Assembly: GCA_002887195.1 (NCBI GenBank)
Contig: PJAB01001777.1
Span: 1-12,261, forward strand
Direction of reading: 5' to 3'
Length of the DNA stretch: 12,261 bases
From: Chrysochromulina parva
Taxonomy: Eukaryota > Haptophyta > Prymnesiales > Chrysochromulinaceae
Translations under genes and position numbers: made by a program
Notes under the pieces: generated by a model
The model's database searches: none
Told to the model about the DNA's origin: nothing
Seen by the model: the letters and a program-made list of their open reading frames with translations, nothing else
Part shown: piece after piece, positions 861 through 12,261 of the stretch
Layout: each line of letters begins with the position of its first letter
How positions within the stretch are numbered: position 1 is the stretch's first letter

Positions 861-2282
861 TCAAGGCCGGCCCTTCCGAACGGACTCCAAATAAGGGTCA
901 GGTTGGCCATCGCCATTCGCGAATAACATTTCGTAGAAGTCGTCCGCTCCGTCGTCGGCCGTGTCCGCCACCGACCTATAGCCAAGATGCGAGCCCGATC
1001 GTTCACCGCCGGCGCGACTGCTCGTTTTTCTGCCCTTGCTCTCAACGTGCGCGGCACCGGCCCGCAGGCTTTGTGTGAACTCGACGAGCGAGATGTAGCC
1101 GCTCTTATCCTTGTCGAATTCGTCAAAGAAGGAAGCCAGCTCCGACCGAGCCGGCGGGTACACATGGAGCTCACTGCACATTTTGCTCACGAGCTTGGTC
1201 ATCTCGTTCCTGTCGAGCTCGCCGCTATGGTCCAAATCGAGCTCACGGAACACGTCCGTGAGGCGCTTCAAGTTGCCGAGGAGCATCTCGCGCAGCTGCT
1301 TCCGGCCCTGGCCATCTGAGAGGTCGAGGACTTTCGGAAGTTGGGGAAGCGCCGCGTCGAGCAGCTTCTCGAACGCCAGCCCTGAGCGCCGGGCACGGCG
1401 AATAGCGGCCCAGCCGTCGCTCAACGTTGCAGCCGATGGAGCACTCGTGCTCTGCGGCATGCCGCTCGCCCGCGCGGGCGAAGAAGCTCGCCATGCCACT
1501 GAAGGTAGGACGCCTGTGAACGGCGGGGCTCCCTTTTTCGCGCCAGTCAGAGACGGGCTTTGCTGTTCCGGTGGCCGACGCAGCGATGGCGATGATGTCG
1601 GTGGCAGCTGAGCAAGCGACTTTGAAGCAGTGATCGCCTTGGCGCCGGCGACAGCCCGCCCACGAGCAACTGCAAATGCGTCCTTGATGTCCTCGAGGCC
1701 CACCGACGCTGGAGATGTTGCCACCAACGCCACGGCTGGAGGGGCGCCGGCATGAGCATCCTCGACTTGCTCCCGGCTTGCAAGGCTCGGAAGTGTCAAC
1801 TCGACAGTTGGCTTCACCGCCAGCGACGCCTCATTCGACGGAGCGCCGAGGGGCACGGTGCCCACGTTGGCCGACAAGGCGACGGCTCTGAGGGCCGGTA
1901 CCTTCAAGGCTTGCGGGGCGGGGCCTACACGAATGGGGGAGGGCACCGGTGGCGAGCCAATGAGCTGCAGCATGGCGGTGATGCTGTGCGGCGATGGCTC
2001 TTCGTCCCCTGCCCCTGGCTGAGAGCCGCTCCTCGTCCAGGAGCAAGGCGACGCATCGTACAAGGGCGACCAACTCCGTCGTGATGCGTCGTAGGAGTTC
2101 CCTCCCCGCAAGTCCTCCACCAAGAAGTTTGACGGAGGTTGGGGGGAACTCGGCCTCGGCGAGGGGGACCACAACTGCGGCGCACGCTTTTGCGGCGAGC
2201 GGCGCCGCGGCGGCGACGCAGCCTCGAGGCGGCCGTACACGCGCTGGAGCGTGACATCGAGCACATCGTCCGCGCGCCGCAT
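861..2282 (-). CDS. EF-hand protein with long Pro/Ser/Ala-rich N-terminal region
   Basis: An uninterrupted 473-codon frame runs from ATG at 2282-2280 to TGA at 863-861. Two canonical EF-hand loops lie near the C-terminus. Loop 1 is DLDHSGELDRNE (residues 349-360, bases 1238-1203) and loop 2 is DKDKSGYISLVE (residues 390-401, bases 1115-1080). Both have Asp at 1, 3, Ser at 5, Gly at 6 and Glu at 12, so both should bind calcium. They form a single pair as in calmodulin-like sensors. Residues 1-310 are low-complexity Pro/Ser/Ala/Arg with no recognised domain. The acidic tail contains DDGADDFYEM. The frame stays open about 199 codons further upstream, but that stretch crosses an AT-rich patch and repeats and looks non-coding. 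I therefore start at the Met before RRADDVLDV. The gene has no introns, unlike its neighbours. The role is presumably calcium-responsive regulation; the target is unknown. Confidence 0.78.
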   Translation of the reverse strand: MRRADDVLDVTLQRVYGRLEAASPPRRRSPQKRAPQLWSPSPRPSSPQPPSNFLVEDLRGGNSYDASRRSWSPLYDASPCSWTRSGSQPGAGDEEPSPHSITAMLQLIGSPPVPSPIRVGPAPQALKVPALRAVALSANVGTVPLGAPSNEASLAVKPTVELTLPSLASREQVEDAHAGAPPAVALVATSPASVGLEDIKDAFAVARGRAVAGAKAITASKSLAQLPPTSSPSLRRPPEQQSPSLTGAKKGAPPFTGVLPSVAWRASSPARASGMPQSTSAPSAATLSDGWAAIRRARRSGLAFEKLLDAALPQLPKVLDLSDGQGRKQLREMLLGNLKRLTDVFRELDLDHSGELDRNEMTKLVSKMCSELHVYPPARSELASFFDEFDKDKSGYISLVEFTQSLRAGAAHVESKGRKTSSRAGGERSGSHLGYRSVADTADDGADDFYEMLFANGDGQPDPYLESVRKGRP

Positions 2283-3027
2283 GCTGGGGGCGGAACGGAG
2301 ACGGGAGAGGAGGCCAACTCCTCTCCGACGCCCCCTTCGTCTAGCAACGCTCGGCGATCGATGCGATTGTGAGACAAGTTTTGCACGTTTGCAAAAATCA
2401 AAGTTCGCCCAAATTTGAAATTTTAGCCTGCGCTCGGGGTAACCTGAAATTTCTCGATCACCAAATAATTTTTCAGACGCCACCGCGTGGACCTCGACCT
2501 GCCCATGCATACGAATACTCGCTTCGACTCTTGTGTGTCGCACTCGCTCTGCACCTGTGCCACAGGCCCGCTGTGCAGACGCAACGTGCACAATGCCACA
2601 ATCCATTGTGATTGTCGTATGTCGAGGATCACCAGCATGTAGATGTACCATGGCTTGCCGCCGCGCCCCCATGCTGCCGCCTTGTGCGCCTACTACACTG
2701 TACGACACGTCTCCGCTGCCCTCGTGTGCGAACGCTTCGTCCTGGGCGTCATGGGCACCATGTACTATTGTATTGTGGCCCTTCCCACCGCCGCGTTGAG
2801 AGAGCCGCGGCTCGGCGACGCGCCATGGTGAGCACGTGAGAGAGCGCCATGGTGAGCACATGAGCGCCGTGGTGAGCACACGAGAGAGCTGCGGCTCGGC
2901 GACGCGCCGTCCCGGCGCCAGCGCTCACACGCTCACGCGCCGTCCCGGTCGGCGACGCGCCATCACGGCGCCATCGTTCACCCGCTCACCATGGCGCTCA
3001 CGTGCTCACCATGGCGCTCTGACGTGC
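2283..3027. other. intergenic region upstream of the EF-hand gene
   Basis: This spacer separates the EF-hand start from the PDZ-gene stop, both on the minus strand. It should hold the EF-hand promoter and 5' UTR and the PDZ-gene 3' UTR. It contains an AT-rich patch (2371-2476) and repeats and inverted repeats at 2797-3033. No supported gene is seen. The cysteine-rich plus-strand frame near 2533-2799 lacks an ATG and any domain. Confidence 0.55.
2371..2476 (-). promoter_or_regulatory. AT-rich island, candidate promoter of the EF-hand gene
   Basis: About 105 bases upstream of the chosen EF-hand start are strikingly AT-rich against a GC-rich background. They carry A and T runs (GCAAAAATC, AATTTGAAATTTT, AATAATTTTT) and the near-palindrome AAATTTGAAATTT. 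The position 90-195 bp upstream of the ATG fits a core promoter. No specific factor site is assigned. Confidence 0.35.
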
Positions 3028-3033
3028 TCACGC
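2797..3033. repeat. direct and inverted repeats built on GTGCTCACCATGGCGC
   Basis: The plus strand carries GCCATGGTGAGCAC-type units several times in 2822-2880. The reverse complement, GTGCTCACCATGGCGC, appears at about 2986-3030, so the two blocks can pair across roughly 100 bases. A second unit, CGGCTCGGCGACGCGCC, occurs near 2808 and 2891 and, shortened, near 2948. The core is the same motif found inside several introns of this window (GTGCTCACCACGGCGC). Confidence 0.7.
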
Positions 3034-4428
3034 GCCGCCGCCGGGCTGATCGTAGACATCATCACGCGGCGTCTCGGGCGCCATCGGGGCGGCGCGGGGC
3101 ATGCCCATCACGGCCAGGTCGCGGCCCGCGACCACGAAAGTGATCGGGTCGGGCGCGCGGGCGAGGTACCTGATGAGGACACCAATCAGAGACCATCAGA
3201 GGCAATCAGCCTTCGGGCGAGGTACCTGATGAGGACACCAATCAGAGACCATCAGAGGCAATCAGCCCTCATCAGTGGCCCTCATCAGCGTACTTCATCG
3301 TCTCCTTGGCTGATTCGGTCACTGCGCCGTCCACTGACAAGATGACATCTCCGACCTCGAGATTGGTCGCGCCGGCAGGCAGAGGGATGCGCGGCTTCTC
3401 GTACTTCTGCGCGGGGACGCAATCAGTGGCAATCAGTGGCAATCAGTGGCAATCAGTGGCACTCAGTGGCACTCAGTGGCACTCAGTGGCAATCGGTGGC
3501 AATCAGTGGCACTCAGTGGCACTCAGTGCGTCCTTGCCTGGACGTAGACGCCCACGCCGCATGCGGTGTCGGCAAGGAGGAGAGTGCCGTTGTCTTTGGT
3601 GGACCAGGGGTTTGGGATGGTGACGAGCCTGGAAGGGCTGTTGCCGGCCACCTCAAGGATGATCTCCCCGCGGAGATCAGTGAGCTTGTCGATGATCACC
3701 TGCCATCAGGGAGGTCATCAGGGAGGTCATCAGGGAGGTCATCAGGGAGGTCATCAGGGAGGTCATCAGGGAGGTCATCAGGGAGGTCATCAGCTCTCGC
3801 ACATTGGTATCGACGATGCACTCCTCGCCCACGGATAAGATAATGTCGCCGACCAGCAGCCCTGATCGATGGGCGGGGAATCCAGGCTCGAGCTCAAGGA
3901 CGACAACGCCGTCCGCCCGTTGCCCACAGTTGGCGAGGGTCATGCCGAAGCCGTCGGTGCCTGATGAGCGAGGCCATCAGGGAGGTCATGAGGGAGGTCA
4001 TGAGGGAGGTCATGAGGAAGGTCATCAGAGAAGCCATCGGGAGGCCATCAGGGATGCGGCCATCAGGGAGGCAATCAATAGGTCATCAGAGGCAATCAAT
4101 TGGTCATCAGAGGTCATTAACGTACCGACCACAGGCCGAACGAAGTGGGTACCCATCTCGGTGCTCAGCCCGGCGCCCGTGATGCCGATATCTCGCTCGA
4201 TCTCCTGCCACGCGCCGTTTCGAGCGCATCAGAGGGTGAGCGCCGTGTTGAGCACACGCAGGCGCACTCGGGCGCACTCGTTGCTGACCTCATTATCGAT
4301 TTGGAGCGACTGCAGAAGAAGGCGGCGGCGAGGGCGGCGGCGAGGGCGGCGGCGAGGGCGGCGGCGAGGGCGGCGGCGAGGACAGCGAGGAGCCCCAGGC
4401 ACAACAGGAGAGGAGAGAGTGCATGCAT
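3028..4428 (-). CDS. two-PDZ-domain protein, multi-exon, possible signal peptide
   Basis: Exons supported by the PDZ fold: 4204-4126, 3960-3803, 3699-3538, 3406-3294 and 3169-3028 (TGA 3030-3028), joined in frame to 217 residues. PDZ1 has the carboxylate-loop segment DGFGMTL, then EPGFPAHRSGLLVGDIILSV and IIDKLTDLRGEIILEV. PDZ2 has GVGVYVQ, then NLEVGDVILSVDG and ARAPDPITFVVAG. PDZ domains bind C-terminal peptides of partner proteins. The 5' end is uncertain. The best model starts at ATG 4428-4426 with a first exon 4428-4258, giving MHALSPLLLCLGLLAVLAAA plus further LAAA repeats. This looks like a signal peptide whose hydrophobic core is lengthened by a 12-bp minisatellite. An intron 4257-4205 would follow. 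If that is right, the protein has 274 residues and is secreted or sent to a membrane compartment or plastid. An alternative N-terminus ending LLLQSLQIDNE lies in another frame. No orthologue name is assigned. Confidence 0.68.
3158..3267. repeat. 56-bp tandem duplication across an intron acceptor
   Basis: Bases 3158-3211 and 3214-3267 are identical over 54 positions at an offset of 56. Each copy holds, in sense orientation, an intron tail ending TCATCAG and the exon start GTACCTCGCCCG. Confidence 0.9.
3170..3293 (-). other. PDZ-gene intron with duplicated 3' part (GT-AG)
   Basis: Sense strand: donor GTACGCTGATGAG after ATGAA, acceptor CCTCATCAG before GTACCTCGCCCG. The junction restores KETMKYLARAPD. 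The interior is made of TGATTGCCTC/TGATGGTCTC decamers. The last 56 bases are a tandem copy that includes the acceptor and the first bases of the next exon. Confidence 0.8.
3407..3537 (-). other. PDZ-gene intron, GC-AG type
   Basis: Sense strand: donor CAG/GCAAGG, acceptor GCGCAG before AAGTACGAG. This joins GVGVYVQ to KYEKPRIP. A GT donor six bases upstream (VY/KYEK) is possible, but CAG/GCAAGG is the known GC-AG consensus. The interior is an array of 10-bp TGATTGCCAC/TGAGTGCCAC units. Confidence 0.7.
3421..3528. repeat. 10-bp tandem repeat filling an intron
   Basis: Ten full copies and one partial copy of AATCAGTGGC / ACTCAGTGGC on the plus strand (sense GCCACTGATT / GCCACTGAGT). It occupies nearly the whole intron. 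Confidence 0.95.
3700..3802 (-). other. PDZ-gene intron of 12-bp repeats
   Basis: Sense strand: donor GTGCGAGAGC after GATACCAAT, acceptor GATGGCAG before GTGATCATCGAC. The join gives IVDTN/VIIDKLTDLRG inside PDZ1. The intron is 103 nt, not a multiple of three, so its retention would shift the frame although the repeat itself contains no stop in the incoming frame. Confidence 0.75.
3704..3793. repeat. 12-bp tandem repeat (CATCAGGGAGGT), 7.5 copies
   Basis: Seven perfect copies from 3704 to 3787 plus a half copy. The sense strand reads TGATGACCTCCC, which would encode repeating Leu-Met-Thr-Ser if retained. The unit is the TGATGACCTC decamer seen in other introns with two extra C's. Confidence 0.95.
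3961..4125 (-). other. PDZ-gene intron (GT-AG), family A
   Basis: Sense strand: donor GTACGTTAATGACC after CCTGTGGTCG, acceptor GCTCATCAG before GCACCGACGGC. The join restores RPVVGTDGFGMTL. The interior has degenerate TGATGACCTC, TGATTGCCTC and TGATGGCC units and repeated CCTCATGACCTCC. Confidence 0.8.
4205..4257 (-). other. candidate short first intron of the PDZ gene
   Basis: Sense strand GTGTGCTCAACACGGCGC to GCGTGGCAG, 53 nt. It would join the signal-peptide frame (ECAC) to EIERDIGITG in phase 0 and remove an in-frame TGA. It contains the family B core GTGCTCAACACGGCGCTCACC. Other donors (such as GTCAGC near 4287) would fit a different upstream frame. Confidence 0.4.
4322..4381. repeat. 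12-bp minisatellite (GCGGCGGCGAGG), 5 copies
   Basis: Five perfect tandem copies. On the minus strand and in the candidate signal-peptide frame each unit encodes Leu-Ala-Ala-Ala, extending the hydrophobic core. Confidence 0.9.
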
Positions 4429-4687
4429 GCAGCGAGGGTACGGAGGGCACAGGTGAGAGAGCGCGCGCCGTATTGGTCACCGGGGGGAGTGGGGAGCTGA
4501 GAGGGAGCTGAGAGGGAGCTGAGAGGGAAGGATACGGGGAGATGCGGGGAGATGCGGGGAGATGCGGGGAGCTGCGGGGAGCTGCGGGGAGCTGCGGGGA
4601 GCTGCGGGGAGCTGCGGGGAGCTGCGGGGAGCTGCGGGGAGATGCGGGGAGATGCGGGGAGATGCGGGGAGCTCAGAAACGGCGCGT
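4429..4687. other. spacer between FAIM-like stop and candidate PDZ-gene start
   Basis: A 259-bp spacer between two minus-strand genes, mostly satellite sequence: GGGAGCTGAGA-like 11-bp units (about 4493-4529) and a 10-bp array (4531-4670). It would serve as the FAIM-like 3' UTR and the PDZ-gene promoter. No gene is supported; the proline-rich minus-strand frame is a translation of the repeats. Confidence 0.55.
4531..4670. repeat. 10-bp G-rich minisatellite, 14 units
   Basis: The units are one GATACGGGGA, three GATGCGGGGA, seven GCTGCGGGGA and three GATGCGGGGA, head to tail and in register. Each has a GGGG run spaced six bases from the next, which fits the G-quadruplex spacing rule on the plus strand. 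Confidence 0.95.
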
Positions 4688-5753
4688 TCAAGAGCCTAAT
4701 CGATCGTCCGCATCCCTAATTTGGGTCGGATTCACGAGAAACCGAATCTTCACAGCCGACCGCTGTGGGATGGCGCCGCAGTGGGATGGCGCCGTCGTGG
4801 ACATGGCGCCGTCGTGGGCATGGTGGGTTCGCGGCGGGCGATGGGCGCCATCGTGGGCGGTGGGCGCCGTCGTGGGCGGTGGGCGCGTACGTAGTTGAAG
4901 CCGTGCGACCGCCCTCGTGAAATGGTAATGGTGGCGGGGCGGCCTCCGACCTTGCATTGGTGTTGCGCACGAGACACAAAAGGACGCGCTTTGGTGAGCA
5001 CTTGCATGCAAGGCGGGTGAACAGAGGCCGAGGGTGGCGGGGCGGCCTCCGACCTTGAATTGGTGTTGCGAGCCATTGTCCACAAAGTAGCCGAAGAGCG
5101 TCTTCGTGCGCTCCACCTGATGGGGGAGGCAATCGGACGTCATGCGAGCCATTCAGAGGCTCCTCAAGGGTCGGGCGCACCATCTCCTTGTTGACGTAGA
5201 TCTTGCGGATGCCTGAGCGGCGTCCATGCCGTAGAAGGATCTGGTAGTACTTGTCGTTGAGCGTGTAGACCCATTTGACCTGGATCATGTTGAAGTTCTC
5301 GTGCTCCTCGGACTGCACGACGCGCACGGAGCGCGGCGTGCCCAGCTCGTCGCGCAGCGTGATGGTCCCGGCAGCGTTCGACGAGTCCAAGCTTGACGAG
5401 CTCGCGTTGAGAACCTCCTTCTTGAGCTTGCGCGCCGAGAGCGGTCCCGAGCCGGCGCTCGGCACCGAACCTAAGGAGAGGGCGGGGATGGCCGGAGCGC
5501 CGCTGCTGCCGGACCCGCCGCCGCCCAAGCCGGCGGCCGGCAGGTTGAGCGAGAAGCCCGTGCTGCTCGCCCTTGGAGCTGGGTCAGCCGCTGCCGGCTC
5601 AGCCGCTCCCGGGTCAGCCGCTGCCGGCGGCAGCCCTCGCGCCGCGCGGAAGGAGTCGAGCCGGCTCCGCGTGCCGTCGAGGGGAGCAGGAGCTGTGGCC
5701 GCCACCTCCGCTGCCTTCGCCTGCTCCTTCCGGAAAGATTCGAGACGTGACAT
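4688..5753 (-). CDS. FAIM1-domain-like protein with Ser/Ala/Pro-rich N-terminus
   Basis: Exons 5753-5181, 5116-5054, 4950-4891 and 4762-4688 give 256 residues, with ATG at 5753-5751 and TGA at 4690-4688. Residues 1-140 are low-complexity, with a repeated SRLxSFR motif (residues 2-8 and again near 31-37). The C-terminal segment VKWVYTLNDKYYQILLRHGR, then SGIRKIYVNKEM, VERTKTLFGYFVDNGSQHQF and VGGRPATITISRG...GFNY follows the start of the Fas apoptosis inhibitory molecule 1 fold: HGxxSGxRxxYVx, F-VG-x-x-x-ATI, GF-x-Y. Only about the first FAIM repeat is present, so the protein is short for the family. A FAIM1 role in animals is known; the function in a protist is not. The last exon start is the least certain: acceptors at 4763 (RSAVKIRF) and 4748 (IRF) share a frame. 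The gene is divergent from the CHD gene. Confidence 0.7.
4763..4890 (-). other. FAIM-like gene intron 3 of CCCACGACGGCGCC units
   Basis: Sense strand: donor GTACGCGCCCACC after GGCTTCAACTAC, acceptor CATCCCACAG. The interior repeats CCCACGACGGCGCC and close variants (family C). The acceptor could also be GTGAAG, 15 nt further on, in the same frame. Confidence 0.6.
4951..5053 (-). other. FAIM-like gene intron 2, created inside a 38-bp direct repeat
   Basis: Sense strand: donor AAG/GTCGGAGGCC, acceptor CAATGCAAG/GTCGGAGGCC, joining HQFK to VGGRPATITI. The two junctions are the same sequence: bases 4930-4967 and 5033-5070 match at 37 of 38 positions, with an offset of 103 bp equal to the intron length. 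The interior carries the family B core GCATGCAAGTGCTCACC. Confidence 0.8.
5117..5180 (-). other. FAIM-like gene intron 1 (GT-AG, 64 nt)
   Basis: Sense strand: donor GTGCGCCCGACCC after AAGGAGATG, acceptor CCCCCATCAG before GTGGAGCGCACG. The junction gives NKEM/VERTKTLF. The acceptor matches family A; the interior has TGACGTCCGATTGCCTC, a degenerate family A unit. Confidence 0.75.
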
Positions 5754-6087
5754 TCGTCCTTGCTCTACGTGCAATTCGTGTGAACTGGCCGACTCGACAT
5801 TTGGATACTGTCGCTTCACACGCAAATGAGGAGGGGCACGGGCCTCCAGGGGATAGATTTGGGGCTCGTTGAGGTAGTCGGCGGTCGGACGAGAATGGAC
5901 TTGACTTGACCCGACTTGACTTGGCTTGACTTGTCTTGTGTCGACATACAGTACAGACCAGACGCGTGATCTTTTGCTACACGCGCCCTAAGGCCACGCG
6001 GGCGCTATCCCCCCCTTGCCGTCCGTCCGCTTCGCGAAAGTCGCTCGCCGCCAAGCGCGCCGCGCAACTCGCGGCCGCGTCGACGCC
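5754..6087. promoter_or_regulatory. divergent promoter region, FAIM-like (-) and CHD (+)
   Basis: These 334 bases separate two divergent start codons and should hold both promoters and 5' UTRs. At 5898-5936 there is an array of GACTTGACTTGAC-type pentamer/decamer repeats (TTGAC) that ends shortly before TCGACATACAGTACAG. No TATA box is evident. The CHD ATG at 6088 sits in a good context (GACGCCATGG). Confidence 0.5.
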
Positions 6088-9000
6088 ATGGCGAATGATG
6101 AAGACAGCGATGGTGAAGCGGCTCGCAAGCGTCCTCTGGGAAAGCCGCCCATCGGCAGCAACGGTCGGCCTCAGATTTGGAAGCCTGACACGGGCTGGGT
6201 CGACGAGATGGCGGGCTTCAACCCGTCCGGCGTTCGAGGAACTCGAGAGCGTAAGCAGACGCGCAAGGCGCTCGAGAAGGTGGCTTGGCTTGACGAGGAC
6301 GACGAGGACGACAGAGCGCGAGCGCGTGCCGCGTCTCACAAGGACGATGACGATTTGACCTTTGGCCTCGGCGGGGCGACTCATCGGAGGGCTTCGGGCG
6401 GCAAGAGAGGCAGCATGACTGTGTCAGCACTTGAGCGCGCACGAACGGCCGCCGCTGCAGCGGCGTCCATGACGCAACCCGTATCCCTGGCGCCGCCGCC
6501 AGCCGACTTCAAGCCTCTCGCCGACCTCAAGGGAGCCAATGCCTCCGACGTCGTCGGCAGGCGAATCCGCACGTGGTACGAGGGCGACGCAGGCAGCGAC
6601 GCAGGCGGCGGCGCAGGCGGCGACGCCGGCGGCGACGCAGGCAAGGATGGCTCTGCGACCGTTTGCAGCAGGGGTGGGCACGAGCGCCGTGTTGAGCCCG
6701 CGGTGGGCATCGTGACGTTCTACGACCCTGCCGGCCGGCTGCACGCTGTGTACGATGGCGAGAACGAGGCCAATGGGCTCTGGGTCGACGGGGACGACGA
6801 ATGGGAATGGGTGGGACGCCCTTGATGACGTCTGATTGCCTCTGATGACGTCTGATTGCCGCTGATGGCCTCTGATGACACCCTTGATTGCTTCCCTCAT
6901 CAGGTGGACGAGGGCGACCCCCTCTTCGCGCCACCGTCGCGGGAAGAATTGTTTGGCAAGTGGAGGGAGGACGACGTTACGGAGGAGATCGAGAGGATTT
7001 ACCTGGTGCGCGAGTCGGCGGCGGAGAGCGAGATCGGGGGAGATCGACTGCGGAGCGAGATCGAGGGAGATCGACTGCGAAGCCGATCGGCGCCATCGCC
7101 GCCCCAGCTCGAGTTCTACGTCAAGTGGAAGGCGCGATCCCACCTCCACTGCCAGTGGGTGCCCAGGACGGCGCTCGAAGAGGACAATGACCTCAACAAG
7201 CGGCGCGTAGCCAAGTTCCTCAAGCAGCTCGCGACGGCGCTCGCGGACGCACGAGCGTACGCCGCCGACGCGGCCGCCGACGCGGCCGCCGATGCGGCCG
7301 CCGACGGCGCGGCGCTCAGCGGCAGCGGCAGCAGAGCGCCATTGACGCGAGTGGAGTCCTCTACGAGCGCCGTCCTGGGCATGGGCTTCGACGAGCGCAT
7401 CGGGCGCGCGGCCGTGGATGTCGATGGCCATCCTTGGGAGGCGGGGGGCGCCGTCGTGGGCGATGGGCGCCGTCGTGGGCGCGCGGCCGTGGATGTCGAT
7501 GGCCATCCTTGGGAGGCGGGGGAGCAGCCTTTCAATGCCGACTACTTGGAGGTGGACCGTGTGGTCGCCTCTTGATTGCCTCTGTTGACGTCTGATTGCC
7601 TCTGATGACACCCTTGATTGCGTCCCTCATCAGGTGGACCGTGTGGTCGCCTCGCGCCCCTCAGAGCATGGTCTACCGCCTTCGTTTCTGGTCAAGTGGC
7701 GCGCCCTCCCGTAAGCGAGCGCTCACCACGGCGCCCTCCCGTATGCGAGCGCTCACCACGGCGCTACGTGGGGAGGGTGGCCTCGCATGCAAGTGCTCAC
7801 CACGGCGCCCCGCACCTCTCTGGTTCCCCACAGGTATGCGAGCGCTACTTGGGAGGGATGCCTCGCCCTTGTCAACCACCAGAGCGCGATCGCGGCGTTT
7901 CGGGCGCGTCAGCGGCCGCCGCCGCCCGGCGAGGTGGTGCTCGCGCTCAACGGCTACCGTCCACCGCCGTCCAACTTCACACCGCTCGCTGCCTCGCCCC
8001 AGTACAAGAATGGCCACGTCCTGCAGCCCCACCAACTCGATGGGCTCAACTGGCTTCTCTTCAGCTGGTGCGGCATGACCCTCCGCGCCCACGACGGCGC
8101 CCGCGCGCCGCCACCGCACTGCCGCGCAGCCACGTCGCATAGGTTGGCCGCCGTGCGCCGCTGCCACATCGCCGTCACATCGCCGCCGCGTTGCGATCTC
8201 TTCACACCGCGTTGCGATCTCTTCACAGCGTCTCGCAGTCTCCCTGGCTCCCGTTCACAGCTCCCTTGCTCCCCTTCACAACAGGTACAATCATCGCTCC
8301 GTGATCCTCGCCGACGAGATGGGCTTGGGCAAGACGGCCCAGGCCATTGCGATGCTCGACCACATCTGGCGGCGCGAGAGCATCCGAGGCCCTTTTCTCA
8401 TCGTTGCGCCGCTCTCGACACTGGCCCACTGGCAACGAGAGATTGAGGAATGGACTGACCTCTCGGTGCTCAATTATTGGAGACCCCTGATGACCTCTGA
8501 TGACCTCTGATGACCTCTGATTACCTCTGATTACCTCCCTCATCAGGTGCTCAATTACTACGGTCGCGCCGAGTCTCGCGACGTCATGCATCAGTACGAC
8601 GTGGCACTGTGAAGGACCCCCTTAGCATGCACGTGCTCACGACGACGCGCTCGCTCCCCACAGGTACGAGTGGCACTTTGAAGGACTCGCCGCACAGCCG
8701 TCGCCTGGCGCGCCGCAGATGAATGCCATCAGTGGCCATCAGTGGCAGCCGTCCGTGCCGTTGCCGTCGCCGGGCAGAGGTACCGGTAGGGGCAACGGCC
8801 GTGGCGAGAGTGCGCGAGGCGGGGGGCGCCGTAGTGGGCGTGGGCGAGGCTCGACGCTCGACTCTTCCAAATTAGGGAGTGCGAGCGAGGCAGGGACGGC
8901 TGCCAAATTAGGGACTGCGGCCGTTCGGATTCAGGTGCCTTCCGATTACGTCGAAGGGAGACCCCTGCTGATCAAGGTAGGTGCAGCCACCTTTCGCGTC

Positions 9001-12000
9001 CTCGTCCCGCCAGGCACCGCCCCCGGCGCGCAACTCAACATCAGCGTGCCGTGGCCGCCCGTGCTTGCTCCTCAGCCGGCCGCCCCAGCGCCCGCCCCAG
9101 CGCTCGCGACAGCGCCGTGGCCGCCTGTGCTTGCTCCTCAGCCGCCCGCCACAGCGCCCGCGCCGGCACCCACGTCAGCGCCCACGTCAGCGCCCGCCAC
9201 AGCGCCCACGTCAGCGCCCGCCACAGCGCCCGCCCCAGCGCCCACGTCGGCGCCCAATGGCTCGCAAGCAGTTACCGGTGTGGCTGCGGAGGTCGCTGCC
9301 GAGGTCGCCTCGCGATTATGGGCGGCAAGCAGCCCTAATATGGCAATCAGCCCTAATATGGCAAGCAGCTTGGCTAATGCCATGGCTGGGCAGCACGCCG
9401 GCGGTTTCATGGCTAATGCCATGGCTGCTGGGCAGTGCACCTCCGCCACGCAACTAGCAGCGGCAGCGGCGGCAGCGGCGGCAGCGGCTGCAGCGGCTGC
9501 AGCGACAGCATCAGCGTCGTCGTCGGCAGCGGCAGTAGCAGCAGCGGCGGCAGCAGCAGCCAGAACATTGCCGTCTGTGGGAGGGTTGCCATCTTTGGAA
9601 GCAGCCAGAACTTTGCCATCCAATGCTGTAGCTCCAACTATGGGGGTGAAGGCTGAGGCGGGAGCGCCCGGCACGACGCTCTCTCGAAGCGCTCTCGACG
9701 CAATCTCGACGCAATCTGGAGCGCCCGGCACGACGCTCGCTCGATGCGCTCTCGATGCAATCTCGACGCAATCTGGAGCGCCCGGCACGACGCTCTCTCG
9801 AAGCGCTCTCGACGCAATCTCGACGCAATCTGGAGCGCCGGGACGGGCGGCGCCTGTGATGGCGGCGCCCATCAAGTCAGAGTCAGGTCTTGCCGCGACG
9901 GCGCCTGTGATGGCGGCGCCCATCAAGTCGGAGTCAGGTCCGACCGCACTGCCACGCGACCTGCGTGCACCACCTTCTCTGCCTTTCCCGGCACCACCGT
10001 TGGAGCTTCAGGCGTCGTCACGGGCACCACCGTGCACCCAAACGCTGCCGCCGCCGCCGCCACCCCCACACGCACCGGCGCTCCCCGAGGGCCTGAGATG
10101 GAAACACCCCCCGGCACCGGCACTCCCCGGCGCACCTGAACCACCCTCGCCGCCGTCCTCGCCGCCGGGTGACGCGCCCGCAGATATGGAAGTGGAGACA
10201 CCGCCCGCCGCGCTGCCTCCGGTCATGCCACCGCCCGCCGCGCTGCCTCTGGTCATGCCACCGCCCGCCGCGCTGCCTCCGGTCATGCCACCGCCCGCCG
10301 ATATGGAAGTGGAGCCACCGCACGCCGCCGTGCCTGCGGCCATGCCAGCGCCCGCCCAACACAGCGCCCCGACGTGCCACGTGGGCGCCCGTGACGACGC
10401 CCGCGGCGCCCGTGACGACGCTCCGACGTGTCACGTGAGCGCCCGTGACGACGCCCCGACCTGTCACGTGGGTGCCCCTTCATGCGGTGGCGATTCCGAC
10501 GCTCCCAAAGAAGGCAACCCTCCCAAAGATGGCAACCCTTCCACAGATGACAACCTTCCCAAAGATGGCAACCTTCCCAAAAATGGAAACCTTCCCACAG
10601 ATGACGCCCCGGCAGCCGCCGCGACCCCCCGCGACCCCGCCGCTGCGTCGCTCCCCTCACCTCAACTCCCCTTGCCTCAACCGTCGCCTCAGCCGTCTTG
10701 CCCGGCGTGCCGAGGCCGGCACCTCGCCCACACGTGTGGCAAGGGCATCAAGCGGAAAGCTAAAGACGACGAGGGAGCAGCGCTCAAGGAGGCGGTGGTG
10801 CGGGAGGCGGCGCTGGCTGGGGCGACAGCAGGCCGGTCCAACGGCAGCTCAGTTTCGTCATCGAGTCAGCCCAGTTTAGGCAGCGGGCCGGTGGTGCGCA
10901 TGCAGCTCACCGTCGTCACCGGCGTCGTCCCGGGCACTTCGGGCGTCGTCACGGGCACTATGGGCGGCGTCACGGGCACTACGGGCGTCGTCACGGGCAC
11001 CACCTCTCTTCGGGTGCAGCTCTCTGTCGTCAGCGCGCGGACCGCTGGAGGAGCGACCGCGGTGGCGCAGTGCCACGGCACGTCCTTCCCCGCGCCGCCG
11101 TCGTTCCCAAGGCCACCTCCCTTGCCGCCTCTGTCGAGCCGAGTGCAAGTCCCTGCTTCGCAGCAGCATAAGTTGCACAAGTTCCAGGTGTTGCTGACGT
11201 CGTATGAGAGCGTACGGGACGACCCGGAACTGTTCCGTTCAATTCACTGGCGCGCGCTGGTAATCAGCTCTGATGACCTCTGACGACCTCTGATGACCAA
11301 TGATAACCTCTGATGACCTCTGGTGACCTCTGGTGACCTCTGATGACCTCTGATTCACTTCGATTCACTCTGCTGACCTCTCTCATCAGGTGATCGACGA
11401 GGCGCATCGGCTCAAGAACAAGGACTCGTTAATGGCCGCTGATCTGCGCGCACTGCGAACCGAACATACCGTCATGCTCACCGGCACGCCGCTCCAAAAC
11501 AGCACCACGGAGCTGTGGGCACTCCTCTCGCTGCTCGACCCGCAACTCTTCCCCTCCCTCGAGGACTTCCTGCGTCGCTTCGGCAAGCTCACCGACTCTC
11601 ATCAGGTCGATGAGCTGCGCGAGAAGCTGCGCCCGTATTTGCTTCGCCGCCAAAAGGGCGATGTGCTCTCGGGCACGCTCGCGCCGCTGGAGGAGGTGAT
11701 GATTTGGATCGAGCCTCTGATGACCTCTGATGAGCCTCTGATGACCGCTGATGACCTCTGATGACCTCTGATGACCTCTGATGACCTCTGATGAGCCTCT
11801 GATCACATCTGATGACCTCTGATGACCTCTGATGACTTCACAGATGATTGTTTGGGTGGAGCTCACGTACGACCAGAAGAAGATGTACCGCGCCGTGCTG
11901 GAGAGCCGTCGCGACGTGCTGCTGCACGGGGTGGAGAACGCTCCGCTCCCGTCGCTGATCAATCTCCAACTCGAGCTGCGCAAGTGTTGTAACCACCCGT

Positions 12001-12191
12001 GAGTCTCGTCAATTGCCTCTTGATTGCCTCTGATCAATCCGTACCTTCTCCGGGGCTCCTCGCATGCAAGTTTTGCTCTCCACGGCGCGCTCAACCCCCT
12101 TTCGTGTTCCCCACAGGTACCTCATACGTGGCGTCGAGCAATCGATGACGAACCACAAGACAGCGGCGGAGGTGCGCGAGGCGATGCCCCA

Positions 12192-12261
<70 letters not shown>
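6088..12261 (+). CDS. CHD-type chromodomain SNF2 helicase, multi-exon, 3' partial
   Basis: Exons: 6088-6810, 6904-7551, 7634-7710, 7834-8067, 8285-8465, 8547-8593, 8664-11259, 11390-11695, 11844-11998 and 12117 onward. The start is the ATG in GCCATGG. Order of parts: acidic N-terminus; Tudor-like segment (VVGRRIRTWYEG, residues 155-166, then VGIVTFYDPAGRLHAVYDG from 206); chromodomain 1 (EEIERIYLV...EFYVKWKARSHLHCQW, about 268-350); chromodomain 2 (PPSFLVKWRALPYASATWEG, about 452-512); SNF2 lobe 1 with motif I DEMGLGKT (571-578, Lys577), PLSTLAHWQREIEEW, motif II DEAH (1505-1508) and LTGTPLQN (1532-1539); then LRKCCNHPYL. The tandem chromodomains plus GLNWL...SVILADEMGLGKT identify the CHD family of ATP-dependent nucleosome remodelers. 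Helicase lobe 2 lies beyond the window. About 827 residues of low complexity (646-1472) interrupt lobe 1 between the motif Ia region and motif II. The exon 1 donor could also be at 6784. Confidence 0.88.
6586..6651 (+). repeat. 12-bp coding repeat, Gly/Asp/Ala-rich, inside Tudor-like segment
   Basis: Degenerate GACGCAGGCGGC units encode DAGS-DAGG-GAGG-DAGG-DAGK. They separate the WYEG half of the Tudor-like domain from the VGIVTFYD half and lengthen a loop that is normally short. Confidence 0.75.
6811..6903 (+). other. CHD intron 1 (family A)
   Basis: Donor GTGGGACGCCC, acceptor CCCTCATCAG before GTGGACGAGGGC. The interior is TGATGACGTC / TGATTGCCTC / TGATGGCCTC decamers. A donor at 6784 (GTCGACGGGGACGAC) is in the same phase and matches the next exon start at 12 of 16 bases, so the true donor is unsettled. 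Confidence 0.7.
7402..7522 (+). repeat. 46-bp direct repeat flanking a 29-bp insert in CHD exon 2
   Basis: Bases 7402-7447 and 7477-7522 are identical, offset 75 bp (25 codons, in frame). They encode GRAAVDVDGHPWEAG twice. The 29 bases between are GCGCCGTCGTGGGCG units, the reverse complement of the family C intron core. No AG acceptor precedes the second copy, so the segment is read as coding. Confidence 0.9.
7552..7633 (+). other. CHD intron 2 (family A) with perfect 20-bp exon copy
   Basis: Donor GTGGACCGTGTGGTCGCCTC, acceptor CCCTCATCAG, and the next exon starts with exactly the same 20 bases (22 including the shared AG before each). The offset equals the intron length, 82 nt. The join restores DYLE/VDRVVASRP in chromodomain 2. 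Confidence 0.9.
7711..7833 (+). other. CHD intron 3 (family B)
   Basis: Donor GTAAGCGAGCGCT after GCGCCCTCCC, acceptor TTCCCCACAG before GTATGCGAGCGCT (12 of 13 bases shared). The join restores WRALPYASATWE. The 30 bases around the donor (7701-7730) are tandemly repeated at 7731-7760. The interior contains GCATGCAAGTGCTCACCACG. Confidence 0.88.
8068..8284 (+). other. CHD intron 4 (family C, with 21-bp repeat)
   Basis: Donor GTGCGGCATGACC, acceptor TTCACAACAG before GTACAATCATCGC. The join gives NWLLFSW/YNHRSVILADE. It starts with GCGCCCACGACGGCGCC (family C). CGCGTTGCGATCTCTTCACA occurs twice (8187-8206 and 8208-8227). Confidence 0.85.
8466..8546 (+). other. CHD intron 5 (family A)
   Basis: Donor GTGCTCAATTATTGG, acceptor CCCTCATCAG before GTGCTCAATTACTACGG. 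The first 11 bases of the intron equal the first 11 of the next exon. The interior is TGATGACCTC/TGATTACCTC decamers. The join gives DLS/VLNYYGRAESRD. Confidence 0.9.
8594..8663 (+). other. CHD intron 6 (family B)
   Basis: Donor GTACGACGTGGCACTGTGAA, acceptor CTCCCCACAG before GTACGAGTGGCACTTTGAA. About 23 bases match, with one inserted C and one substitution in the intron copy, which has a frameshift and a TGA. The join restores MHQYEWHFEG. The interior carries GCATGCACGTGCTCACGACG. Confidence 0.9.
9661..9831 (+). repeat. 57-bp coding repeat, three copies
   Basis: Copies start at 9661, 9718 and 9775. Each encodes GAPGTTLSRSALDAISTQS with two substitutions in the middle copy. A fourth begins at 9832 and diverges after GAPG. 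Confidence 0.92.
10699..10737 (+). other. zinc-knuckle-like motif CX2CX3HX4C in the CHD insertion
   Basis: The residues are CPACRGRHLAHTC, followed by GKGIKRKAK. The spacing is one residue shorter than the retroviral-type zinc knuckle (CX2CX4HX4C). It could bind zinc and nucleic acid or protein. It is the only cysteine-ordered motif in an otherwise low-complexity insert. Confidence 0.5.
11260..11389 (+). other. CHD intron 7 (family A)
   Basis: Donor GTAATCAGCTCTGATGACC, acceptor TCTCATCAG before GTGATCGACGAG. The join restores RAL/VIDEAHRLKN at helicase motif II. About ten TGATGACCTC-type decamers make up the interior. Confidence 0.9.
11696..11843 (+). other. CHD intron 8 (family A)
   Basis: Donor GTGATGATTTGGATCGAG, acceptor GACTTCACAG before ATGATTGTTTGGGTGGAG. 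The intron start is a diverged copy of the exon start. The join gives APLEE/MIVWVELTYDQ. The interior is more than ten TGATGACCTC units with TGATGAGCCTC variants. Confidence 0.88.
11999..12116 (+). other. CHD intron 9 (hybrid of families A and B)
   Basis: Donor GTGAGTCTCGTC, acceptor GTTCCCCACAG before GTACCTCATACG. The join restores KCCNHPYLIRG. The 5' half has TTGATTGCCTCTGATC (family A) and the 3' half GCATGCAAGTTTTGCTCTCC...CCCCACAG (family B). This is the only intron with a GTGAGT donor. Confidence 0.88.
12189..12261. repeat. poly-C run at the window end
   Basis: About 70 C's with a single T interruption follow the CHD exon 10 frame (VREAMPHP). It would encode poly-proline if real. It looks like a sequencing or assembly artefact at a contig edge, so the CHD frame should not be trusted beyond about 12188. 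Confidence 0.8.

What the first reader, a model, noticed from the sequence alone, without database searches (positions are those of the whole stretch)
7552..12116. CHD introns begin with a copy of the following exon
Seen directly: CHD intron 2 starts with GTGGACCGTGTGGTCGCCTC and the next exon starts with the identical 20 bases. Intron 5 shares 11 of 11 (GTGCTCAATTA), intron 6 about 23 bases with one indel and one substitution, intron 3 12 of 13. Intron 7 has GTAATC against GTGATC, and intron 8 ATGATTTGGATCGAG against ATGATTGTTTGGGTGGAG. Introns 4 and 9 show only faint likeness. The junctions are fixed independently by CHD protein conservation. In most cases the repeat offset equals the intron length. 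Direct repeats at both splice sites, with the upstream copy supplying the GT donor and then decaying, are the expected footprint of intron gain by insertion with target duplication (introners are known in Micromonas and Aureococcus) or by tandem duplication of an AGGT site. Here the duplications are unusually long and of graded divergence, as if of different ages.
Basis: partly seen in the sequence, partly recalled or inferred. Interest (0 to 1): 0.92.

Follow-up and report, generated by a model that had tools for sequence, protein, structure and literature searches.

The report
Introns starting with copied downstream exon
In this probable alga, many introns carry short repeated elements that likely jumped into genes, each probably duplicating tens of letters of the exon it hit, so that one duplicate would supply the splice signal needed to remove the insert; this may be a new way genomes gain introns.

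Summary
Removing nine predicted introns gives a stop-free 1680-codon CHD frame; keeping any one brings stops. Introns 2, 3, 5 and 6 begin with a copy of the next exon; intron 8 holds a decayed one. Two element families recur in the 45-Mb genome: A, ending CTCATCAG|GT (1909 copies, 35 in the reversed control), and B, with a 24-bp core (1660, control 0). Of 86 exact family-B cores, 66 are flanked by direct repeats (median 25.5 bp) against 11 of 507 shuffled pairs. Of 47 family-A sites, 22 have the copy, against 15 of 920 shuffled. Where no acceptor-like AG precedes the second copy, 9 of 10 insertions are multiples of three, against 12 of 43 intron-like ones, so insertions seem to survive as introns or as in-frame codons. 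The upstream exon often lacks a final AG, against AGGT tandem duplication. Long variable duplications, 5'-shortened copies and five reverse-transcriptase matches (two nearest to R2) make target-primed insertion the leading, unproven mechanism. Introners are known; duplications this long and variable were not found in the papers searched.

The parts
6088..12189 (+). CHD-like (chromodomain, SNF2) gene, N-terminal part; the contig ends in a poly-C run
   Evidence: stop-free after splicing nine introns; PDB CHD1/CHD4; Pfam SNF2, Chromo
6811..6903 (+). intron 1, family A type (TGAT repeats, ends CTCATCAG); no copy above chance
7552..7633 (+). intron 2, family A type; first 20 bases copy the next exon
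7552..7571 (+). upstream copy of the duplicated exon stretch, with the predicted GT donor
   Evidence: 20 of 20 identical to 7634-7653
7634..7653 (+). downstream (coding) copy of the duplicated stretch
7711..7833 (+). intron 3, family B type; starts with a copy of exon 7834-7846 (12 of 13) and holds a second copy at 7741-7753
7785..7808 (+). family B core GCATGCAAGTGCTCACCACGGCGC inside intron 3
   Evidence: sequence; genome count of the core
8068..8284 (+). intron 4; no copy at the donor
8466..8546 (+). intron 5, family A type; first 11 bases copy the next exon (8547-8557)
8594..8663 (+). intron 6, family B type; first 24 bases copy the next exon (8664-8686) with one indel and one substitution; core variant at 8625-8648
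   Evidence: sequence
11260..11389 (+). intron 7, family A type; no copy above chance
11696..11843 (+). intron 8, TGATGACCTC repeats, ends TTCACAG; decayed copy of the next exon just after the donor
11999..12116 (+). intron 9, ends TTCCCCACAG, core variant near 12062; no copy at the donor
   Evidence: sequence

Best explanation
These introns carry short repeated elements (introners), often flanked by direct repeats of 13 bp or more, which likely arose when each element was inserted into an exon and duplicated the exon sequence at the target, so that the upstream copy would supply the GT donor while the element brings the AG acceptor. Shown: the repeats, the element families, their dispersal and the CHD reading frame. 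Inferred: the insertion event and the splicing, since no RNA data were at hand. An insertion lacking an acceptor-like AG seems to survive mainly if its length (copy plus element) is a multiple of three, and is then predicted to be translated. Mirrored cases, where the element brings GT and the duplicated exon end brings AG, fit the same rule. The mechanism I commit to, as an inference, is target-primed insertion by a non-LTR (R2-like) reverse transcriptase acting in trans: nicks on the two strands tens of bases apart, copying from the element's 3' end with variable 5' truncation, and fill-in of the stagger. My probability is about 0.8 for insertion with long variable target duplication, and about 0.4 for the target-primed route.
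For: Dispersed families: CTCATCAGGT 1909 against 35 control; TCCCCACAGGT 838 against 7; core with up to 2 mismatches 1660 against 0. Flanking repeats around a core: 66 of 86 at score 12 or more, against 11 of 507 shuffled (Fisher p about 2e-57); all but four of the 84 regions were chosen on the core alone. Family A: 22 of 47 against 15 of 920, and 21 of the 22 copies begin with GT. Independent junctions: CHD frame, CHD homology, kinesin introns in L049-L052. Survival filter: 9 of 10 without acceptor-like AG are multiples of three, against 12 of 43 intron-like (Fisher p 0.0005). Length of the ungapped repeat variable: quartiles 19, 25.5, 32, from 13 to 68 (the 68 and a 55 are in unit arrays, otherwise up to 46). 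5' shortening: 21 of 66 copies join within 3 nt of GCATGC, and others keep part of the head; the 36-bp head has 104 genome copies at up to 3 mismatches against 1660 cores. Machinery: five RVT_1 matches, four without a stop in frames of 1345-2709 aa; four re-scanned as RVT_1, and the two compared with the PDB are nearest to R2 proteins.
Against: No RNA-seq and no empty allele: splicing and the pre-insertion state are inferred. 20 of 86 cores have no repeat at score 12 or more, and 25 of 47 family-A sites have none at score 8; age, background matches, shorter duplications or another origin could explain these. The score threshold hides duplications under about 12 bp, so the lower end of the length range is set by the method. 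At least one of the 66 repeats (L126, a GCGGCAGCGG run) looks like chance low complexity. In 11 of 66 loci the core lies within 4 nt of copy 2, so the 3' tail is missing, which plain target priming from a fixed 3' end does not predict. The recurrent left end at GCATGC is not random truncation. The reverse-transcriptase matches are few and weak (E about 4e-7 to 9e-6; PDB E 1.7e-5 and 9.8e-5) and nothing links them to the elements. The multiple-of-three rule was written after the pattern was noticed in the first 44 regions, so its p-values are optimistic: in the first batch 6 of 7 fit, in the second batch (fetched afterwards) 3 of 3. One of these nine, L160, turned out by eye to be a unit repeat inside an intron. 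Three loci with an acceptor-like AG that could be exonic instead (L135, L143, L155) also have lengths divisible by three, and L124 fell into the mirror class by rule although it looks like a core-only in-frame insert, so the classes are not cleanly separated.
Confidence: 0.78

Rival explanations
1. Staggered double-strand breaks are repaired by end joining: the overhangs are filled in (making the direct repeats) and short abundant DNA or RNA pieces, often intron fragments, are captured as filler.
For: Variable repeat length; core-only inserts without head or tail and mirrored inserts; zero-gap right junctions in 7 of 66 loci, where the repeat begins in the GCGC/GGCGCC-like core end; precedent in Daphnia (PMC4202315, passages).
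Against: The filler is the same family at over a thousand places with recurrent ends; Daphnia repeats shared with an adjacent exon are 4-12 bp.
Confidence: 0.33
2. A non-autonomous DNA transposon (MITE-like introner) cut and pasted by a transposase that makes unusually wide staggered cuts.
For: Most introner families with a determinable state look DNA-based (PMC9860276, section 8); two typed family-A bodies show 6-7 bp of complementarity between their ends, CTGATG(A)/(T)CATCAG, above shuffles; one exonic insertion (L119) appears antisense to its gene, as for a DNA element.
Against: Repeat lengths vary from site to site, also among identical copies (13 to 38 bp), whereas a transposase is expected to give a fixed length (general knowledge); the typed family-B element has no end complementarity above shuffles; the family-A complementarity can follow from its repeat unit.
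Confidence: 0.12
3. Tandem duplication of an exonic AGGT site made the intron, and repeats invaded later.
For: Direct repeats and, in L055, a 52-column repeat at offset 74 across an exon-intron boundary; several whole-unit tandem arrays.
Against: AG precedes only 10 of 22 first copies, 5 of these being a previous element unit; between identical copies there is family sequence, not exon sequence.
Confidence: 0.05
4. Chance or alignment freedom in GC-rich low-complexity sequence.
For: Introns 1, 7 and 9 of the window score at the mean of mismatched pairs, and intron 4 matches away from the donor.
Against: Shuffled-pair controls and the reversed-pattern controls.
Confidence: 0.01

Closest known systems
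Introners with target-site duplication and splice-site co-option (Gozashti et al. 2022, PMC9860276)
   Same: Dispersed similar introns; locus-specific match between intron start and next exon start; element carries AG and the duplication supplies GT (their Fig. 2B type), or the reverse (their Fig. 2C type)
   Different: 3-9 bp repeats are given for previously characterised families, 4 and 8 bp in their figure legend; the lengths of all their own families were not seen. Here the repeats are 13 bp and more, median 25.5, and variable. They screened out low-complexity families (section 17), which family A resembles
Daphnia neointrons from staggered breaks (PMC4202315)
   Different: Repeats of 4-12 bp; no dispersed element family described in the passages read
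Amoebophrya introner elements (PMC7789003)
   Same: Repeated introns with direct repeats at the borders
   Different: 3-5 nt direct repeats plus 8-20 nt inverted repeats; mostly non-canonical splice sites
SINE/LINE-type target-primed retroposition (general knowledge, not from a call)
   Same: Long variable duplications, 5' truncation
   Different: Insert of only about 25-70 bp, ends at a splice acceptor, no poly(A), some copies lack the 3' tail
Fungal stwintrons (PMC12403724)
   Same: Sequence-similar introns at new positions
   Different: No target duplication, seamless insertion (passages)

Membership tests
Introner | groups of introns similar in sequence at unrelated places in one genome | tested here: met
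   (sequence counts; intron status itself is predicted)
Introner | locus-specific match between intron start and following exon, above random pairs | tested here: met
Introner | actually spliced | not testable with these tools
   no RNA data; only the reading frame and homology speak for it
Introner of the DNA-transposon type | short duplication of 3-9 bp | tested here: not met
   13 bp and more, median 25.5, in 66 of 86 family-B loci; the threshold could not see shorter ones in the other 20; 3-9 bp from PMC9860276
Introner of the DNA-transposon type | terminal inverted repeats | tested here: inconclusive
   typed family-B consensus none; two typed family-A bodies 6-7 bp, explicable by their repeat unit
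Non-LTR (target-primed) retroposition | variable-length target duplication | tested here: met
Non-LTR (target-primed) retroposition | constant 3' end with variable 5' truncation | tested here: inconclusive
   5' ends vary; 11 of 66 lack the 3' tail
Non-LTR (target-primed) retroposition | a reverse transcriptase that can act in trans | tested here: inconclusive
   five RVT_1 matches, two compared and nearest to R2; no link shown
Tandem duplication of AGGT | AG immediately before the first copy | tested here: not met
   10 of 22, of which 5 are a preceding element unit

The most novel reading that the evidence does not exclude
Introns of this lineage reproduce as RNA: excised or read-through intron RNA is copied into nicked exons by an R2-like reverse transcriptase in trans, each event duplicating tens of bases of exon. 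The duplicated exon itself becomes the missing half of the new intron (donor or acceptor), and copies without splice signals are kept as new in-frame peptides. Exon duplication, intron birth and protein insertion would be three outcomes of one mobile process.
Probability: 0.3. Interest if true: 0.9.

Novelty: new variant of a known kind. Interest (0 to 1): 0.74.

Why it matters
How genomes gain introns is a long-standing question. Here, in one genome, insertions of graded age can be read with their duplications still visible, and the same element can be compared as predicted intron, as mirrored intron and as in-frame coding insert. The long, variable duplications point to a mechanism other than the short or fixed-length duplications described for introners in the papers read, and make it testable. 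Introner surveys that drop low-complexity families could miss families like family A.

Tried and rejected
AGGT tandem duplication as the general mechanism: rejected. Rfam scan of the window: 0 matches at the gathering threshold. Coding strand by codon statistics: of the core loci not thought exonic, 61 of 71 were sense, as expected for introns, but the 13 thought exonic gave 7 sense and 6 antisense, many with scores near zero, so taken as uninformative (the set of 13 was picked by eye and includes L135, L143, L155 and L160). Pfam on 30 of the 54 frames listed gave few hits: over the cut-off only L119 antisense frame, ABA_GPCR 8.9e-5 (22.8 bits, cut-off 22.1); L155 Arm; L160 HCO3 cotransporter; L115 metallophosphatase; and two below it. 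A constant sum of duplication and element length (near 75 bp) was considered and dropped: intron-like lengths run from 57 to 95 (class 'GTcopy..AG|') and the ten loci without an acceptor-like AG from 45 to 90. Spliced-frame test on 45 sites with a copy: 24 open when spliced against 6 unspliced, but shifted acceptors were often open too, so it is weak in this GC-rich genome. Terminal inverted repeats. Literature: seven searches listed no paper whose title, abstract start or read passages describe introners with duplications of this length. Rogers and Bendich (PMC11782384; abstract and passages) report 4-30 bp repeats, mean 11.4, near intron borders of 213 introns of all classes. Huff 2016 (PMC5684705) is not held and Roy 2023 was seen only as a reference.
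Full report
What was checked. The window lies on contig C1777 of a 45.07-Mb genome in 2199 contigs. The gene at 6088-12189 is a CHD remodeller: SNF2 and chromo domains by Pfam, CHD1 and CHD4 as best PDB sequences. Removing the nine introns listed under parts leaves 1680 codons with no stop; keeping any single one brings 1 to 27 stops. This supports the junctions without using the repeats. Of the 120 listed relatives of the CHD product (5116 found), those whose name gives a source organism or transcriptome and that have the highest identity over at least 65% of it are an MMETSP1464 transcript (52%; organism name cut off in the listing) and Emiliania huxleyi (53%). The host is therefore probably a haptophyte alga; this is an inference.

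The window itself. Introns 2, 3, 5 and 6 begin with copies of the next exon (20/20, 12/13, 11/11, and 24 columns with one indel and one substitution), and intron 8 holds a decayed one just after the donor. Taken singly, introns 2 and 6 beat all 72 mismatched pairs, and introns 3, 5 and 8 are beaten by one; intron 4 matches away from the donor, and introns 1, 7 and 9 show nothing. Summed over nine introns the true pairing is matched by 15 of 100000 permutations.

Genome-wide, family A. CTCATCAGGT occurs 1909 times against 35 for the reversed word. Of 62 sampled sites, 47 single or last-in-array sites were tested: 22 have an upstream copy of the exon start (score 8 or more), against 15 of 920 shuffled pairs, and 21 of the 22 copies begin with GT (Fisher p about 3e-22). 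The sample comes from the first listed places and twenty 10-kb stretches, hence from long contigs. Family A bodies are runs of a 10-bp unit such as TGATGACCTC. The word CCTCATCAG without a following GT is partly background; the intron-like cases among these are mostly followed by GC (read by eye).

Genome-wide, family B. This family is not low-complexity. The 24-bp core GCATGCANGTGCTCACCANGGCGC (up to 2 mismatches) has 1660 copies against 0 in control; 370 copies of its 16-bp right part are followed within 28 nt by CACAGGT (0 in control). I took the first part of the 100 listed places, so the sample was chosen on the core alone and not on a splice site, apart from four regions already in hand that had been fetched for TCCCCACAGGT (L062, L064, L065, L067). 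All sampled cores match the pattern exactly and lie on long contigs, which favours young copies. In all, 86 core loci in 84 regions were analysed. 66 of 86 are flanked by direct repeats of score 12 or more, against 11 of 507 shuffled pairs. The ungapped repeats run from 13 to 68 bp, quartiles 19, 25.5, 32; the two longest (68 in L130, 55 in L149) lie in unit arrays, and outside these the longest is 46. Lengths under about 12 bp cannot be seen with this threshold. Of 48 repeats of 20 bp or more, 13 are identical, 19 are 95-99%, 10 are 90-95% and 6 are below 90%. This grading fits insertions of different ages, although homogenisation between direct repeats could also keep some copies alike.

Independent introns. 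Kinesin motor domains (PF00225) gave 12 regions with 14 introns chosen by homology, read by eye. Five begin with a copy of the next exon (L049 twice, once over 48 columns; L050; L051 decayed; L052). One is mirrored (L056: the exon end is copied at the intron end). One lies in a repeat of 52 columns at offset 74 (L055). Seven show nothing. So this is a large class of introns, not all of them.

Two ways to survive. By the rule, 43 loci have an acceptor-like AG before copy 2 and a GT near the matching place in copy 1; their net insertion lengths are divisible by three in 12 of 43. Ten loci have no acceptor-like AG, and 9 of 10 are divisible by three (Fisher p 0.0005, binomial p 0.0004). The remaining loci are 9 with an AG but no GT near (2 divisible by three), 4 in the mirror class (3 divisible) and 20 without a repeat. 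The rule was written after I had noticed the pattern in the first regions, so the p-values are optimistic; in the batch fetched afterwards (L149-L188) 3 of 3 fit. The one exception, L134, has an AG inside copy 2 and is probably an intron; one of the nine, L160, is by eye a unit repeat inside an intron. The core is open in all three forward frames, and several loci read through it with the flanking peptide duplicated, for example STDAAWNVVV-HASAHHGAP-STDAAWNVVV in L174. The simplest reading is that insertions land in genes and are kept when they can be spliced out or translated. One exonic insertion, L119, appears antisense to its gene, on a weak Pfam match.

Mirrored and full forms. L112, L171 and L184 have the copy at the exon end, the element then bringing a donor such as GTACGTTGATTGCC and the duplicated exon end bringing AG; L142 looks the same at a lower score. 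L124 was put in this class by rule but looks like a core-only in-frame insert (42 bp). The 36-bp head has 104 genome copies. Head, core and pyrimidine-rich tail ending CCCCACAG would make a whole intron of about 70 bp; few sampled copies carry the head.

Mechanism. An inserted element with a duplicated target means cuts on the two strands some distance apart and fill-in. The insert is a dispersed family, the repeats vary in length from site to site, many copies are shortened at the 5' side, and the genome has five reverse-transcriptase matches, four of them without a stop in frames of 1345-2709 aa; the two compared with the PDB are nearest to R2 proteins. I therefore favour target-primed insertion, at about 0.4. 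Break repair with captured intron fragments is the nearest rival (0.33), because 11 of 66 inserts lack the tail and some right junctions look like joins at short matches in the core end. A fixed-stagger DNA transposon is less likely (0.12). None of this enzymology is shown.

Known and new. Gozashti et al. 2022 (PMC9860276; outline and sections 7, 8, 17 and 23 read) describe introners that carry one splice site and co-opt the other from a target duplication; they give 3-9 bp repeats for previously characterised families, and they removed low-complexity families. I did not see the duplication lengths of all their own families. Amoebophrya introners have 3-5 nt repeats (PMC7789003, passages); Daphnia neointrons 4-12 bp (PMC4202315, passages); stwintrons none (PMC12403724, passages); a general survey of intron borders reports 4-30 bp, mean 11.4 (PMC11782384, abstract and passages). 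Introners in mirusviruses (PMC12768974) and the Amorphochlora genome (PMC12730881) were checked in passages only. In the seven searches named under Tried and rejected I found no description of introners with long variable duplications. I therefore call this a new variant of a known kind.

Limits.

Noticed in passing
L167 and L168 (C184, about 1.2 kb apart): The intron in L168 contains the exon-derived copy and core found in L167, as if one intron with its old target duplication had been copied to a neighbouring, similar-looking exon.
   Followed up: no
L049: An insertion sits exactly at an existing acceptor (CTCGCAG|GTACATAG), so an older intron seems to have been lengthened to the new element's AG, with a 48-column duplication.
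   Followed up: partly
L017 1108-1340, L046, L047, L101, L105, L184: Tandem arrays of whole [duplicated exon stretch + element] units; each AG|GT junction could in principle be spliced stepwise.
   Followed up: no
window 8719-11259: CHD exon with very long low-complexity coding insert (Ala, Pro runs; 57-bp coding tandem repeats at 9661-9842).
   Followed up: no
window 3100-5760, minus strand: A minus-strand gene, PDZ-like by eye, whose introns also seem to hold 10- and 12-bp tandem repeats (e.g. 3705-3794).
   Followed up: no
window 861-2879, minus strand: Reading frame with an EF-hand-like stretch (LDLDHSGELDRNEM, DKDKSGYISLVEF), read by eye.
   Followed up: no
window 12190-12261: The contig ends in an almost pure poly-C run, possibly an assembly end artefact.
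   Followed up: no
window 2820-3040: Tandem copies of GTGCTCACCATGGCGC-like sequence, in both orientations, resembling the family B core.
   Followed up: no
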